Assembly: GCA_036381125.1 (NCBI GenBank)
Contig: DASVDK010000280.1
Location: forward strand, 1 to 31,914
DNA length: 31,914 nt
Direction: 5' to 3'
DNA from: DASVDK01 sp036381125 [NCBI: Thermodesulfobacteriota bacterium]
Lineage (GTDB): Bacteria; DASVDK01
Below the pieces are notes generated by a model that worked only from the letters and a program-made list of their open reading frames with translations, made no database searches and had not been told where the DNA came from. The position numbers and the translations under genes were made by a program. Below are positions 1,895 through 21,063 of this stretch, one piece after another. Within the stretch, counting starts at the first letter, position 1, and each line of letters begins with the position of its first letter.

Positions 1895-1920
1895 TGTCAC
1901 AGGACGCCGCGTCGGACGTC
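1895..1920 (+). promoter_or_regulatory. ECF41-type promoter of the sigma gene
   Basis: TGTCACA (1895-1901) is followed after 15 nt by CGTC (1917-1920). This matches the ECF41 target motif as I know it from published work (TGTCACA with a CGTC -10 element about 16 nt away). It precedes the sigma ORF start at 1957, consistent with autoregulation. The same motif occurs before the next gene at 2578-2604, which strengthens the call. Confidence 0.75.
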
Positions 1921-1956: not shown

Positions 1957-2538
1957 ATGGAAGGCTTCGAGGCGTATCGTGACCGCCTGCTCGGGGCGGC
2001 CTACCGCATGCTCGGCTCCCGCGCCGAGGCCGAGGACGTCGTGCAGGAAGCCTACCTGCGCTGGCACCAGGCCGATCGCGAGGCGATCCGCAACCCCGAG
2101 GCCTGGCTCGTGACGGCCGTCACCCGGCTCGCCATCGATCGCCTGCGCGCCCTCCTCGGGCTCTTCGCCCCCGACGCCGCCTGGACCGCCGACGGCGGCG
2201 GCCGCGTGCCCGCGAGCCGCCGGGTGATCGTCGGCGCCGAGCGGATCGCGAGGCTCCTCCTCGGGCTCGGCAAGTCGTTCTATCGGGGCGAGGTCACCCG
2301 GGAGGTCGTGACCATCAACGGCGAGGCCGGGCTCGTCGTCCGGGTCGACGGCCGCATCAGGTCGACGATCTCCATCGCCACCGATGGGGAGCGGATCCTG
2401 GCGGGGTACACGGTCGTCAACCCCGACAAGCTGCCGCGCCCCTTCCCCGACGGCCGGCTCGGGAGGGGGACCGAACTCGAGCAGCCCGCCGCCGGGGAGA
2501 GCGGCCCGCCGCCGGGGATGGAAAATGGAAAGACCTGA
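1957..2538 (+). CDS. ECF41-family RNA polymerase sigma factor lacking region 4 (internal in-frame deletion)
   Basis: Group ECF41 (SigJ-like) sigma factors carry sigma regions 2 and 4 followed by a SnoaL-like C-terminal domain that tunes activity. Here region 2 is present (residues 1-64; AYRMLGSRAEAEDVVQEAYL, then NPEAWLVTAVTRLAIDRLR). It runs directly into the SnoaL-like domain (from about residue 65: ALLGLFAPDAAW, DGGGR at 79-83, NPDKL at 155-159). The WLPEP linker motif and all of region 4, about 110-125 residues expected, are missing without loss of frame. The product is 193 aa, where about 290-320 would be usual. ATG 1957 was chosen because it matches the family start and lies behind the TGTCACA promoter; the frame is open further upstream to 1816. 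The last codons read into a repeat. It could be a pseudogene, an assembly collapse or a trimmed regulator. Confidence 0.85.
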   Translation: MEGFEAYRDRLLGAAYRMLGSRAEAEDVVQEAYLRWHQADREAIRNPEAWLVTAVTRLAIDRLRALLGLFAPDAAWTADGGGRVPASRRVIVGAERIARLLLGLGKSFYRGEVTREVVTINGEAGLVVRVDGRIRSTISIATDGERILAGYTVVNPDKLPRPFPDGRLGRGTELEQPAAGESGPPPGMENGKT

Positions 2539-2567
2539 CCCCGTGGAAAATGGAAAGACCTGACCCC
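2519..2567. repeat. Two tandem copies of a 24-nt REP/RAYT-like element
   Basis: The sequence TGGAAAATGGAAAGACCTGA followed by CCCC occurs at 2519-2542 and again at 2544-2567, in the same orientation and separated by one base. Its reverse complement begins GGGGTCAGGTC, which resembles the short dispersed elements found next to REP-associated tyrosine (RAYT-type) transposases in many genomes. That comparison is from memory. The sigma-factor stop codon (2536-2538) lies inside the first copy, so the last few residues of the protein are repeat-encoded. No other copy was noticed in the window. Confidence 0.7.
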
Positions 2568-2638: not shown

Positions 2639-3115
2639 GTGACCCCACGCATCGACCTGAGCAAGTACCACTCGACGGGCCTCGTCCGCGCCATGCTGGC
2701 GCTGCAGCGCGAGGTGGAGGCGAGCGGCCTCGAGCACCGGCTGCTCGAGCTCGTCAAGATCCGGGCCTCGCAGATGAACGGCTGCGCCTACTGCATCGAC
2801 ATGCACACCAAGGACGCCCGGGCGCAGGGCGAGACGGAGCAGCGGATCTACGCCCTCGACGCCTGGCGCGAGACCCCCTTCTTCACCGACCGGGAACGGG
2901 CGGCGCTCGCCTGGACCGAGGCGGTCACGAACCTCGCCGACGGTCACGTCCCGGACGAGGTGTACGAGGAGGCTCGCCGGCACTTCAACGAGCCCGAACT
3001 CGTGGCCCTCACCTTCGCCGTCGTGGCGATCAACGGCTGGAACCGCCTGTCGATCCCCTTCCGAAAGGTCCCCGGCAGCTACCAGCCGCGCACGGCGGCC
3101 GCCACCTCCGCCTGA
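2639..3115 (+). CDS. Carboxymuconolactone decarboxylase / AhpD-like family protein
   Basis: Small all-helical protein of the CMD/AhpD superfamily, 158 aa from the chosen start. It carries the redox motif CAYCIDMH (CxxC plus His) typical of AhpD-like alkylhydroperoxidase proteins. Members have thiol-dependent peroxidase activity or act as unknown oxidoreductases. The GTG at 2639 has a strong Shine-Dalgarno (AGGGAGGA, 2623-2630) about 9 nt upstream; the in-frame ATG at 2615 sits at the predicted transcript end and lacks a ribosome site. The gene is one of the standard ECF41 partners (carboxymuconolactone decarboxylase, oxidoreductase or epimerase, the COE group) and has an ECF41 promoter. Its physiological substrate is unknown. 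Confidence 0.93.
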   Translation: MTPRIDLSKYHSTGLVRAMLALQREVEASGLEHRLLELVKIRASQMNGCAYCIDMHTKDARAQGETEQRIYALDAWRETPFFTDRERAALAWTEAVTNLADGHVPDEVYEEARRHFNEPELVALTFAVVAINGWNRLSIPFRKVPGSYQPRTAAATSA

Positions 3116-3205: not shown

Positions 3206-3220
3206 TTCGGCACATATCGC

Positions 3221-3320
3221 TGGGGGAGTGCTCGCGGCCCGAGGCGGCCGCCCGCGCTGAGAGTCCCGCGGAGGGACGACCCTTCGAACCTGATCCGGGT
3301 CATGCCGGCGTAGGGAAGCG
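3221..3320 (+). ncRNA. TPP riboswitch (THI element)
   Basis: Thiamine-pyrophosphate-sensing leader RNA. The conserved parts are present in order: the opening GGGGGAGTGC (from 3222), CTGAGA (3257-3262), a short GTCCC/GGGAC hairpin, ACCCTT (3279-3284), GAACCTGATCCGGGTCATGC (from 3286) and the closing GCGTAGGGAAG (to about 3318). The genes that follow are thiS, thiG and thiE, exactly the expected targets. A terminator-like hairpin lies 20-25 nt downstream, so control is probably by premature termination when TPP is bound. Confidence 0.96.
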
Positions 3321-3341
3321 ACCTGAATCCAGTGTGGAATC

Positions 3342-3372
3342 AAGCCGTGTCCCAGCCGGGCACGGCTTTTTT
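3342..3372 (+). terminator. Rho-independent attenuator of the TPP riboswitch
   Basis: AGCCGTG (3343-3349) pairs with CACGGCT (3361-3367), with CCC/GGG extending the stem, followed by a run of six T (3367-3372). It sits between the aptamer and the thiS ribosome-binding site. In the family, ligand binding favours this hairpin. The antiterminator pairing was not worked out here. Confidence 0.88.
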
Positions 3373-3388
3373 CGTTGGAGCCGCTCGC

Positions 3389-3595
3389 GTGGCGCTGACC
3401 ATCACTCTGAACGGCGAGCCGTACACCCTCGAGGGGCCGGCCACCCTCGCCGCGCTCCTCGAACGGCTCGAGATCCACCCGCAGACCGTCGCGGTGGAGC
3501 TGAACCAGGACATCGTCCGGCGCGACCGCCTGGCCGAGACGCCGCTTGCCGAGGGGGACAGGGTCGAGGTCGTGCGGATGATCGGCGGAGGCTAG
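3389..3595 (+). CDS. thiS: Sulfur carrier protein ThiS
   Basis: Ubiquitin-fold sulfur carrier for thiazole synthesis; its C-terminal Gly-Gly is adenylated by ThiF and converted to the thiocarboxylate. At 68 aa it is the usual size and ends RVEVVRMIGGG. The GTG at 3389 follows a TTGGAG ribosome site (3375-3380) just after the attenuator. An earlier in-frame GTG at 3332 would start inside the leader, before the terminator hairpin, and is rejected. The stop is 3 nt before thiG, and the thiG ribosome site (GGAGG) lies inside the thiS end, so the two are probably coupled. ThiF is not encoded in this window. Confidence 0.93.
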   Translation: MALTITLNGEPYTLEGPATLAALLERLEIHPQTVAVELNQDIVRRDRLAETPLAEGDRVEVVRMIGGG

Positions 3596-3598
3596 ACC

Positions 3599-4372
3599 AT
3601 GAACGACACCTTCCGCCTGGCCGGCCGCGAGTACCGCTCGCGCCTCATCGTCGGCACCGGCAAGTACGCCACCATGGAGCAGATGGTCGAGGCGCTCGAC
3701 GCGTCGGGCACCGAGATCGTCACCGTGGCGATCCGGCGCGTGAACCTCGCCGACCGCTCCCGGAAGTCGCTGCTCGACTACCTCGACCTCTCGCGGTACA
3801 CGCTCCTGCCGAACACCGCCGGCTGCTACACGGCCGAGGAGGCGGTGCGCGTGGCGCGCCTCGCGCGGGAGGCGACCGGATCGAGCCTCGTCAAGCTCGA
3901 GGTCATCGGCGACCAGCGCACCCTCTTCCCCGACAACGAGCAGACCCTCGTCGCCGCACGGCAGCTCGTGCAGGAAGGCTTCACGGTCCTTCCCTACTGC
4001 ATCGACGACCCGATCGTCTGCCGGAAGCTCGAGGAGATCGGCTGCGCCGCCGTCATGCCGCTCGCGGCGCCCATCGGATCCGGCCTCGGCATCAGGAACC
4101 CGCACAACATCCGGATCATCCTCGAGTTCGCGAAGGTGCCGGTCATCGTGGACGCCGGCGTCGGCCAGGCGTCCGACGCCGCCTACGCCATGGAGCTCGG
4201 CGTCGACGCCGTCCTCATGAACACCGCCATCGCCGGCGCGAAGGAGCCGGTCCTCATGGCCGAGGCCATGAAGGCGGCCGTCGAGGCGGGACGCAAGTCG
4301 TTCCTCGCCGGGCGGATCCCGCGCAAGCTCTACGCCCAGGCGTCGAGCCCCATCGAGGGGATGATCGAGTAG
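3599..4372 (+). CDS. thiG: Thiazole synthase ThiG
   Basis: Cytosolic TIM-barrel enzyme that builds the thiazole phosphate ring from deoxyxylulose 5-phosphate, dehydroglycine and sulfur carried on ThiS. Its 257 aa match the family. Signatures include [10 protein letters not shown] near the N-terminus, the Schiff-base lysine in [10 protein letters not shown] (about residue 99), [32 protein letters not shown] (phosphate binding) and [18 protein letters not shown]. It follows thiS by 3 nt and precedes thiE by 11 nt in a TPP-riboswitch operon. The dehydroglycine-forming enzyme (ThiO or ThiH) and ThiF are not nearby. Confidence 0.97.
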
Positions 4373-4383
4373 ACTGACGGGAT

Positions 4384-5049
4384 ATGCCCCGGCTCGACTT
4401 CCGGCTCTACCTCGTGACCGACCGGAAGGCCGCGGAGGCGGCCGGTCGAACCCTTCCGGCCGTCCTCGGCGCCGCGCTCGCCCGGGCCGCCGCGCGGGGC
4501 GTGCGCGTCGGCGTGCAACTCAGGGAGAAGGACCTCGACGGCGGGCCGCTCCTGGCCCTGGCCCGCGAGGCCCGCGCCGTCACGCGCGACCACGGCGCCC
4601 GCCTCCTCGTGAACGACCGGCTCGACGTGGCGGTCGCGGCCGAGGCCGACGGCGTGCACCTGCCGGCGCGCGGGCTGCCCCCCGACGCGGCCCGCAAGCT
4701 CCTCGCCGCCACGGGCCTCATCGGCGTCTCGACCCACTCGGCCGCCGAGGCGGCGGCCGCGCGCGACCGGGGCGCCGACTTCGTGGTGCTCGGTCCGGTG
4801 TACGAGCCTGCGTCCAAGCGGGCCGCCGGCCCGCCGCTCGGCGTGGCGGCCCTCGCCGGCGCGGTGGGCGAGGCCGGCCTGCCGGTGCTGGCGCTGGGCG
4901 GGCTCACGCCCGAGCGGGTGGCGGAGGTCGTGCAGGCCGGCGCGCACGGCGTCGCCTGCATCGGCGCCGTCATGGGCGCGTCCGACCCGGCCGCGGCGGT
5001 CGACCGCTTCCTCGACGCGCTCGAGGCGCACACCGGGGCCCCGGCATGA
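4384..5049 (+). CDS. thiE: Thiamine-phosphate synthase ThiE
   Basis: Joins hydroxymethylpyrimidine diphosphate and thiazole phosphate to give thiamine phosphate. At 221 aa this is a normal TIM-barrel ThiE. Visible motifs are FRLYLVTDRK at the N-terminus, VQLREKDLDGG (diphosphate and pyrimidine binding), LLVNDRLDVAVAAEADGVHL (Mg and thiazole region), IGVSTHSAAEA, DFVVLGPVYEPASK and ALGGLTPERV. It is the third gene of the riboswitch operon. Its stop overlaps the next gene by 4 nt (ATGA), so the small zinc-ribbon protein is probably translated with it. Confidence 0.96.
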   Translation: MPRLDFRLYLVTDRKAAEAAGRTLPAVLGAALARAAARGVRVGVQLREKDLDGGPLLALAREARAVTRDHGARLLVNDRLDVAVAAEADGVHLPARGLPPDAARKLLAATGLIGVSTHSAAEAAAARDRGADFVVLGPVYEPASKRAAGPPLGVAALAGAVGEAGLPVLALGGLTPERVAEVVQAGAHGVACIGAVMGASDPAAAVDRFLDALEAHTGAPA

Positions 5050-5885: not shown

Positions 5886-6107
5886 GATCCCGACGACCTG
5901 TCCTTGAGGATACGTCCTCCGCGCGACTCGCGCGCGACCGGCCTCGTTGTCGACGACCGCCGCGGTATCCCATCGCGGGGCCACCTGGGGCGTCCCCGCC
6001 ACAGGCCCCGAGGGTCCGGGCGCCGCAACGGGGCCTCCGCACAGCGCTTTTCCCGGCAGGCCGCACGGCACGGGCCTTGCGAACGCCTCGCGCGAGAGAG
6101 GCGCCGC

Positions 6108-18787: not shown

Positions 18788-19326
18788 ATGGCCGCTCTGG
18801 TTCTCGTTCAGGACTCGATCATGGTCGGCGCCCGGCCGGCCCGGCCGAGGCCGATTCGGCGCGGATGGTGTCCGTCGTCTCGGGCGTTGGGCGTCCCGTA
18901 GCTCCCGGTGCCCGATCGTCTCCACTGGTCAGCGTACCTCGCCCGGTGCTGGCCGGGCCCTGAAGGAGACCTCCTCGCAGCTCGCCGCCAGAGGCTCCGC
19001 GTTATCGATCATTCGACGGAGCGAGCCCACGAGCGTCGGCGGCGCGGAGCCTGCGCGGTCGGACACACTGCGGGCACGGGACTCGCGACACGGACGGGCA
19101 CGCGGAAGACGATGACCCGACTGCGCAGGAACGAGGGAACGGCGGTCGGGCCGCCGTGATAACGAGGGATTGCTCTGTCCGGGCGCACCCGAGATACGTT
19201 CCTGGAGCCTCGTTGCAGGCGGCAGACTTCCGGGTCGACCCGGGGTATCATCGCGGTTGCGGTCGGGCAGGAGATGCCGAGCCGTTGCTCGCCTCGCACT
19301 CGGCCAGGACGGTGAAGAAGATCAAG
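18788..19326. other. Divergent intergenic region between the AfsR-type regulator and the histidine kinase
   Basis: About 540 nt without a convincing gene; the open frames here are short and Arg-rich. It should hold the promoters for both directions. On the plus strand TATCAT (19246-19251) is a good -10 box about 75 nt before the kinase start, directly preceded by a perfect 14-nt palindrome (19230-19243). A clear -35 box is not visible. Confidence 0.5.
19230..19251 (+). promoter_or_regulatory. Palindrome plus -10-like box upstream of the histidine kinase
   Basis: CCGGGTCGACCCGG (19230-19243) is a perfect palindrome placed just before TATCAT (19246-19251). A dimeric regulator bound there would cover the spacer of the promoter. 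No good -35 is seen, consistent with an activated or regulated promoter, but this is only a candidate. Confidence 0.35.
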
Positions 19327-21063
19327 ATGGCGAAGAAGACGGATCACGGCCTCACACCGCCCGCGTCCGTGCAGACCGAGGCCCAGACTCCCGGCGCAGC
19401 CGCGCAACGTCCCGTGGACGACCGACCGCCGGCGGCCGGCTTCCGGCAGTCGCCCGCTCGAACCTCGGTGGAGGTGCGCCCCGACGAGGGCTGGTTCCGG
19501 CTCCTCGTCGAGCGGATACGGGACTACGCCATCTTCCTGCTCGACCCCGAGGGGCGGGTCGCCACCTGGAACGCCGGGGCCGAGCGGATCAAGGGCTATC
19601 GGGCCGACGAGATCATCGGTCGCCACTTCTCGTGCCTCTACCTGCCCGACGACGTCGAGGCCGGCAAGCCGGGGGCCATGCTGGAGGCGGCAGCCCGCGA
19701 CGGGCGGGTGGAGGACGAGGGCTGGCGGCTGCGCAAGGACGGGTCCGTCTTCTGGGCCAGCGTGGTCATCACGCCGCTGCGCGATCAGGACGGCCGGCTC
19801 CTCGGCTTCGGCAAGGTCACCCGCGACCTGACCGAGCGCCGGAGGAAGGAGGCCGAGGTCCGGGCCGCCAACGTCGAGCTCGCCCGGCGGGCCGACGATC
19901 TGACGGCGGCCAATCGGCAGCTCGAGACCTTGAGCCTGCTCGTCTCGAGCGTCGTCGACTACGCGATCTTCGTCCTCGACCCGGCCGGTCGAGTCGTCAC
20001 CTGGAACATCGGGGCCGAGCGGATCAAGGGCTACCGGGCCGACGAGATCATCGGCCGGCACTTCTCCCGCTTCTACCCGCCGGAGGACGTCGAGGCGGGC
20101 AAGCCGGCGATGGAGCTGCGCGAGGCGTCCGCGCACGGCAGCTTCGAGGACGAGGGGTGGCGCGTCCGCAAGGACGGCAGCCGCTTCTGGGCCAACGTCG
20201 TGATCACCGCCCTGCGCGACGCCGAGGGGCGCCCCGTCGGGTTCGCCAAGGTCACCCGTGACCTCACGGAGCGCAAGCAGGCCGAGGAGCATCGCATCCA
20301 GCTCGCCATCGAGCGGAAGGCCCGCTCGGAAGCCGAGGCGGCCGTGCAGATGCGCGACGAGTTCCTCTCGATCGCCTCGCACGAGCTGAAGACGCCGCTG
20401 ACCCCCCTGCTGCTCCAGATGCAGATCCTCCTGCGGGGCCTGCGGGCGGAGGGGCTCGCGAGCTACTCACCCGAGCGGCTCGTCTCGATCATCGAGAGCG
20501 CCGAACGGCAGGCCCGCCGGTTCGCCGCGCTCGTCGAGCAGCTCCTCGAGGTCTCCCGCATCGCGGCCGGGCGGCTGGAGCTCGAGCCGGAGGAGGTGGA
20601 CCTCGCCGAGGTCGCGCGAAGCGTCGCCCTCCGCTTCGACGCCGAGATCGCCCGCTCAGGCTCGCCGTTCACGCTCGCGCTCGACGGCCCGGTGATCGGT
20701 CGCTGGGACCGCCTACGGCTCGAGCAGGTGATCGTCAACCTCCTCTCGAACGCGATCAAGTACGGCGCCGGCCAGCCGATCGAGCTGCGCGTCGACCGGC
20801 AGGACGAGACGGCGCGGCTCGTCGTGCGGGACCGGGGAATCGGGATCGACCCCGCGGACCAGGAGCGGATCTTCAGGCGCTTCGAGCGGGCCGCTCCCTC
20901 CCGGGCCTACGCGGGGCTCGGGATGGGCCTCTACGTCGTCCGGCAGATCGTCGAGGCCCACGGGGGATCGGTGCGCGTCGCGAGCGCGCCCGGCGCCGGC
21001 ACGGCCTTCACGGTGGAGCTACCCCGAGACGGAGCCGAGCCGGCGGCGGCCGTCGCATCCTGA
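19327..21063 (+). CDS. Cytosolic sensor histidine kinase with two near-duplicate PAS domains
   Basis: 578-aa kinase with no membrane helix. PAS1 spans about 57-172 and PAS2 about 204-317. The two are about three-quarters identical by eye, sharing WN.GAERIKGYRADEIIGRHFS and KVTRDLTER, which points to a recent tandem duplication. A short coiled coil precedes HisKA (phospho-acceptor H352 in SIASHELKTPLTP). The HATPase domain follows, with the N box around IVNLLSNAIKYGAG, the D/G1 box VRDRGIGIDP and the G2 box GLGMGLYVVRQIVEAHGG. The start is ATG 19327, chosen as the best candidate; the frame is open upstream to 19156 but that part does not look coding. The response regulator follows after 9 nt, so they form a pair. 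The signal is unknown; no haem or flavin residues were identified. Confidence 0.93.
   Translation: MAKKTDHGLTPPASVQTEAQTPGAAAQRPVDDRPPAAGFRQSPARTSVEVRPDEGWFRLLVERIRDYAIFLLDPEGRVATWNAGAERIKGYRADEIIGRHFSCLYLPDDVEAGKPGAMLEAAARDGRVEDEGWRLRKDGSVFWASVVITPLRDQDGRLLGFGKVTRDLTERRRKEAEVRAANVELARRADDLTAANRQLETLSLLVSSVVDYAIFVLDPAGRVVTWNIGAERIKGYRADEIIGRHFSRFYPPEDVEAGKPAMELREASAHGSFEDEGWRVRKDGSRFWANVVITALRDAEGRPVGFAKVTRDLTERKQAEEHRIQLAIERKARSEAEAAVQMRDEFLSIASHELKTPLTPLLLQMQILLRGLRAEGLASYSPERLVSIIESAERQARRFAALVEQLLEVSRIAAGRLELEPEEVDLAEVARSVALRFDAEIARSGSPFTLALDGPVIGRWDRLRLEQVIVNLLSNAIKYGAGQPIELRVDRQDETARLVVRDRGIGIDPADQERIFRRFERAAPSRAYAGLGMGLYVVRQIVEAHGGSVRVASAPGAGTAFTVELPRDGAEPAAAVAS

What the first reader, a model, noticed from the sequence alone, without database searches (positions are those of the whole stretch)
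1957..2538. ECF41 sigma factor that has lost region 4 but keeps region 2 and its SnoaL-like control domain
Region 2 (to about residue 64) is joined in frame to the SnoaL-like domain with DGGGR and NPDKL. The WLPEP linker and the whole -35-recognising region 4 are gone. The frame is intact and the codon use is normal. A protein that could still bind core RNA polymerase and the -10 element but not the -35 box could act as a competitor or modulator of a full ECF41 elsewhere. It may instead be a deletion pseudogene or an assembly collapse.
Basis: partly seen in the sequence, partly recalled or inferred. Interest (0 to 1): 0.72.

Follow-up and report, generated by a model that had tools for sequence, protein, structure and literature searches.

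The report
Sigma factor missing its DNA-reading half
A bacterial gene-switch protein of a known family has lost, in one clean in-frame cut, the part that reads the upstream half of its target promoters, although both of those promoters are still intact beside it; it is most likely a recent loss-of-function deletion rather than a new kind of regulator.

Summary
Window 1957-2538 encodes 193 aa: an intact ECF41-type sigma region 2 (residues 1-64) joined in frame to a SnoaL-like extension. Region 4 is not found elsewhere in the window. Both partner promoters survive as exact ECF41 consensus (TGTCACA-N15/16-CGTC), before the sigma gene and before the carboxymuconolactone-decarboxylase-like (CMD) gene; a Steroidobacteraceae relative has the same layout with a full-length sigma factor. 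Surviving conserved residues show no decay (region 2, 22 of 22; SnoaL, 15 of 17). No other region-2/SnoaL fusion was listed in overlapping scans of 299, 396, 385 and 296 genomes (capped lists); 58 of 58 fetched relatives keep region 4. Best reading: a recent in-frame deletion that abolishes autonomous promoter recognition. A modulator or split-sigma role is possible but without positive support. The window's own genome and sister genomes were out of reach, so age, paralogues and assembly error remain open.

The parts
1895..1920 (+). ECF41-type promoter of the sigma gene, TGTCACA-N15-CGTC
   Evidence: Exact motif; only 2 in the window, 0.04 expected from 100 shuffles; motif from Wecke 2012, passages read
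1957..2148 (+). Sigma region 2 (residues 1-64), intact
   Evidence: Pfam E 2.9e-15; 22 of 22 positions conserved at 80% kept
2148..2149 (+). In-frame deletion junction; 111-125 residues missing relative to 31 relatives
   Evidence: Alignment
2149..2433 (+). SnoaL-like C-terminal extension without its first helix, with DGGGR (2191-2205) and NPDKL (2419-2433)
2434..2538 (+). Atypical 34-residue C-terminal tail and stop codon
   Evidence: 31 of 31 aligned relatives have tails of at most 18 residues
2519..2567 (+). Two tandem copies of a 24-nt repeat (2519-2542, 2544-2567) holding the stop codon
2578..2604 (+). ECF41-type promoter of the CMD gene, TGTCACA-N16-CGTC
2639..3115 (+). Carboxymuconolactone decarboxylase / AhpD-like gene with a CxxC motif, the usual kind of ECF41 target
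   Evidence: Pfam CMD E 4.2e-22; target kind from PMC3426412

Best explanation
This is an ECF41 sigma locus in which one recent in-frame deletion removed the sigma2-sigma4 linker, region 4 and the first SnoaL helix. The protein can probably still fold region 2 but cannot read the TGTCACA -35 element, so it no longer activates its own promoter or that of the CMD gene. The circuit is off, or served only by another ECF41 sigma if the genome has one. Shown: architecture, junction, intact promoters, intact conserved residues, no like relative in the samples seen. Inferred: recency, loss of function, deletion as the event.
For: Clean in-frame loss of 111-125 residues against 31 relatives. The cut ignores domain borders and takes a SnoaL helix. 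Region 4 is present in 58 of 58 fetched relatives and not found in the rest of the window (best E 0.37). No junction-spanning relative was listed in the scans of 299, 396, 385 and 296 genomes; 32 rows that ran past or near the junction were fetched and read and none is such a fusion (12, 20). Broken ECF41 genes are not rare: of the 58 loci L027 and L029 are split between frames and L046 is cut short without a SnoaL part, and L072 has an in-frame stop. Both promoters are still exact and the layout equals that of L001, as expected soon after loss. In S. [quoted passage not shown]
Against: Every region-2 position conserved at 80% or more (22 of 22) and 15 of 17 SnoaL positions are kept, within the range of intact relatives, and frame and codon use are normal, which a functional remnant would also show. 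Recency is inferred, not dated. No sister genome was available. The AlphaFold comparison that would show a damaged SnoaL domain is weak.
Confidence: 0.66

Rival explanations
1. Functional modulator: region 2 with a SnoaL remnant binds core RNA polymerase and competes with, or tunes, a full-length ECF41 encoded elsewhere that keeps reading both promoters.
For: Conserved residues kept; both -35 elements kept although this protein has no region 4 to read them; some genomes carry several ECF41 genes, e.g. G002 has eight matches over the family cut-off.
Against: No relative with this architecture listed in the scans of 299, 396, 385 and 296 genomes. The genome of the close full-length relative, G001, has a single match over the cut-off. 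In B. licheniformis an ECF41 lacking its whole extension hardly bound RNA polymerase (PMC3426412, passages read), and the first helix of the extension is missing here.
Confidence: 0.15
2. Assembly or sequencing artefact: the true gene is full length and the contig joins two sites wrongly, or reports a minority strain.
For: Single sequence, no reads, no sister genome; the whole genome is not held.
Against: The breakpoint regions share at most 8 nt (median 6) within 30 nt either side in 31 relatives, below the k-mers that assemblers commonly use (recalled); exact in-frame join with normal codon use.
Confidence: 0.14
3. Split sigma factor, as in B. subtilis SigO-RsoA: this protein supplies region 2 and a separate protein supplies region 4.
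For: Intact region 2 and intact promoters; precedent described in PMC8103513 (passages read).
Against: No region 4 found in the window; no like architecture listed elsewhere.
Confidence: 0.05

Closest known systems
ECF41 sigma factors (SigJ-like; NCBIfam TIGR02957 SigX4)
   Same: Region 2, SnoaL-like extension with DGGGR and NPDKL, CMD-like neighbour, TGTCACA/CGTC promoters
   Different: No WLPEP linker, no region 4, no first SnoaL helix, atypical tail
Steroidobacteraceae MAG locus L001 (full-length ECF41 + CMD)
   Same: Same order promoter-sigma-promoter-CMD; 69% identity in the best segment
   Different: Full length; one nucleotide separates its sigma stop codon from the second promoter, whereas 144 nt, with a repeat, lie between NPDKL and the second promoter in the window
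B. [quoted passage not shown]
   Same: A region-2 protein without region 4 (PMC8103513, passages read)
   Different: No separate region 4 partner found; RsoA has no SnoaL domain (recalled)

Membership tests
ECF41 | Sigma region 2 | tested here: met
ECF41 | Sigma region 4 | tested here: not met
ECF41 | WLPEP motif in the linker | tested here: not met
   motif from PMC3426412
ECF41 | SnoaL-like C-terminal extension with conserved motifs | tested here: inconclusive
   DGGGR and NPDKL present but first helix missing; Pfam match below its cut-off, as also in full-length L001. That DGGGR and NPDKL are among the three motifs of Wecke 2012 was not confirmed: the passages do not spell them
ECF41 | Neighbouring COE gene | tested here: met
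   CMD at 2639-3115
ECF41 | TGTCACA-N16(+/-1)-CGTC promoter | tested here: met
   Two exact matches
ECF41 | Activates the COE promoter | not testable with these tools
   Needs an assay
SigO-RsoA type split sigma | Separate region 4 partner | tested here: inconclusive
   None found in the window; genome not held

The most novel reading that the evidence does not exclude
A one-step fusion of sigma region 2 to the SnoaL remnant has created a standing regulator without -35 recognition that binds core RNA polymerase and damps or partners a full-length ECF41 acting on the same two intact promoters.
Probability: 0.12. Interest if true: 0.65.

Novelty: new variant of a known kind. Interest (0 to 1): 0.3.

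Why it matters
If it is a loss event, it is a clear natural case of an ECF circuit broken at the sigma factor while its promoters are still exact. If functional, it would be a natural sigma-derived competitor and a simple test of what region 2 plus a SnoaL remnant can do without -35 recognition.

Tried and rejected
Search of the window's own genome: not held. The taxon was not pinned down; the phylum of the window is not determined. Viral collection: searches found no relative; one search found one, L061, counted as intact. Plasmid collection: 450 records match; the 15 rows seen are all two-piece matches of full-length size; the other 435 were not viewed. The 24-nt repeat was sought exactly in viral contigs (0), with two degenerate positions in 61 loci (0) and exactly in 147 genomes of the order of G001 (0); in plasmids 3 records with weak partial matches. 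That it is a REP/RAYT-type element is recalled and not shown (a paper search, listed papers that I did not open); its surroundings do not fold unusually well (z -1.27). A microhomology origin was considered: relatives show 0-5 nt of in-register identity at the breakpoints, so it is unproven. AlphaFold at equal, shallow depth (5 sequences): P0001 mean pLDDT 57.3, SnoaL blocks 39-63, one helix 47-68 running across the junction; L001 mean 68.7, SnoaL blocks 55-91; but the other four L001 models average only 52-56, so this is weak evidence. No fold search was run, since the P0001 model is poor. Paper searches: ECF factors lacking region 4 (1 paper with at least two of six terms, not opened); ECF41 + sigma factor + truncat (11 papers, passages read in four: PMC3426412, PMC6180224, PMC8999054, PMC8103513); further listings. 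In these I saw no region-4-less ECF41, but seven of the 11 were not opened. Searches used a wrong frame for the CMD gene (2641 instead of 2639); redone (Pfam; viral); NCBIfam was not repeated for it.

Full report
What is there. The ORF at 1957-2538 gives 193 residues. Residues 4-65 match sigma region 2 (E 2.9e-15) and residues 61-146 match SnoaL_2 weakly from profile position 11; there is no region 4 match up to E 1. The best named family is TIGR02957 SigX4 in two stretches, below its full-length cut-off, and the best solved structure is SigJ, 5xe7, in two stretches. That SigJ belongs to ECF41 is stated in PMC8999054 and PMC8103513 (passages read). The full-length relative L001 from a Steroidobacteraceae MAG matches region 2, region 4 and SnoaL_2 from position 2.

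The junction. An alignment with 31 relatives (32 rows with P0001; L005 left out as a duplicate of L001, L027 and L029 left out because they are split between frames) places the cut after IDRLR and before ALLGLF. Relatives have 111 to 125 residues there: the linker with WLPEP, region 4, and the helix before the SnoaL core, which in the L001 model is residues 169-184. Nothing resembling the lost part was found elsewhere in the window: a profile of it gives a best E of 0.37 over six-frame pieces of 25 residues or more, while the same profile finds the fetched relatives.

Signs of decay. None clear in the retained parts. Of positions conserved in at least 80% of relatives, P0001 keeps 22 of 22 in region 2 and 15 of 17 in the SnoaL part; at 90%, 13 of 13 and 11 of 11; at 70%, 27 of 28 and 18 of 23. 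Intact relatives scored the same way (at 80%, each against the others) range from 48 to 100% and from 29 to 100%. Given its region-2 similarity, P0001's SnoaL part is slightly less similar to relatives than average (mean residual -0.046; intact relatives -0.075 to +0.072, three of 31 lower), a mild hint against the SnoaL part that lies within the normal range (all). GC by codon position is 0.78/0.47/0.91 and 0.71/0.52/0.98, like the CMD, alr and thiG genes nearby. This fits either a recent cut or continued selection and does not separate the two.

The surroundings. Two exact TGTCACA-N(15-17)-CGTC sites occur in the window, at 1895-1920 and 2578-2604, against 0.04 expected from shuffles. They stand directly before the sigma gene and before a CMD/AhpD-like gene at 2639-3115 (Pfam CMD, E 4.2e-22). 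This is the ECF41 promoter and a usual ECF41 target as described by Wecke 2012 (PMC3426412, passages read). L001 has the same layout, with its own two exact sites at 5921 and 6863. Both sites could be kept because the loss is recent, or because another ECF41 sigma reads them; the second cannot be tested as the genome is not held.

The 3' end. In L001 one nucleotide separates the sigma stop codon from the second promoter. In the window 144 nt separate NPDKL from that promoter and include two copies of a 24-nt repeat holding the stop codon. The tail of P0001 after NPDKL is 34 residues; in 31 of 31 relatives it is at most 18. The locus thus seems to have been disturbed twice (inference).

Relatives with the same cut. 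P0001 was searched in 299 genomes of the phylum of G001 (37 with hits), 396 of the phylum of G002 (93), 385 of the class of G059 (51) and 296 of the order of G001 (13). The sets overlap, E-value limits differed (1e-10, 1e-11, 1e-13, 1e-14), only the best 8 or 11 candidates per genome were scored where there were more, and the match list was cut. Many full-length genes appear as two separate pieces, others as a single piece that runs from region 4 or the linker into SnoaL. Of 58 distinct loci (L001-L061 without L005, L059 and L060), 58 have a detectable region 4 and 51 have region 2, region 4 and SnoaL in one frame; L027 and L029 are split between frames, L046 is cut short without a SnoaL part, and L034, L039, L040 and L057 have region 4 in frame but a SnoaL part that this test did not detect. 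Thirty-two further regions whose rows ran past or near the junction were fetched and read. Of the first twelve, ten are full length, L072 has a stop inside region 4, and L073 showed only a SnoaL part; of the next twenty, all twenty are full length. So no second case was found; other listed rows were not each re-read, and it is not known whether the window's own phylum was sampled.

Assembly. The two breakpoint regions share at most 8 nt (median 6) within 30 nt either side in 31 relatives, so a repeat-driven collapse is unlikely; a chimeric join remains possible without reads.

Function. Wecke 2012 found that the ECF41 extension is needed: removing it wholly abolished activity and left hardly any polymerase binding, while removing only its C-terminal part made the factor more active (PMC3426412, passages read). 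Here region 4, the linker and the first part of the extension are gone, so promoter activation by this protein alone is very unlikely (inference). That the remnant binds core polymerase is possible, since region 2 is complete, but untested. The S. [quoted passage not shown] I therefore favour a recent loss-of-function deletion (0.66), over a modulator (0.15), an artefact (0.14) and a split sigma factor (0.05).

Noticed in passing
window 2519-2567: Two perfect tandem copies of a 24-nt repeat between the sigma gene and the CMD promoter, holding the sigma stop codon; perhaps a REP-type element (recalled, not shown).
   Followed up: partly
window 3212-3333: TPP riboswitch (Rfam RF00059, 70.2 bits) before ORFs that look like thiS, thiG and thiE (3332-5049, named from their translations, not searched).
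   Followed up: no
window 19501-19800 and 19936-20235: 300-nt direct repeat at 75% identity inside ORF 19156-21063, which looks like a sensor histidine kinase (named from its translation): two similar modules in tandem.
   Followed up: no
L046, L027, L029, L072: Other ECF41 genes cut short, split between frames or with an in-frame stop, suggesting that this locus is lost from time to time.
   Followed up: partly
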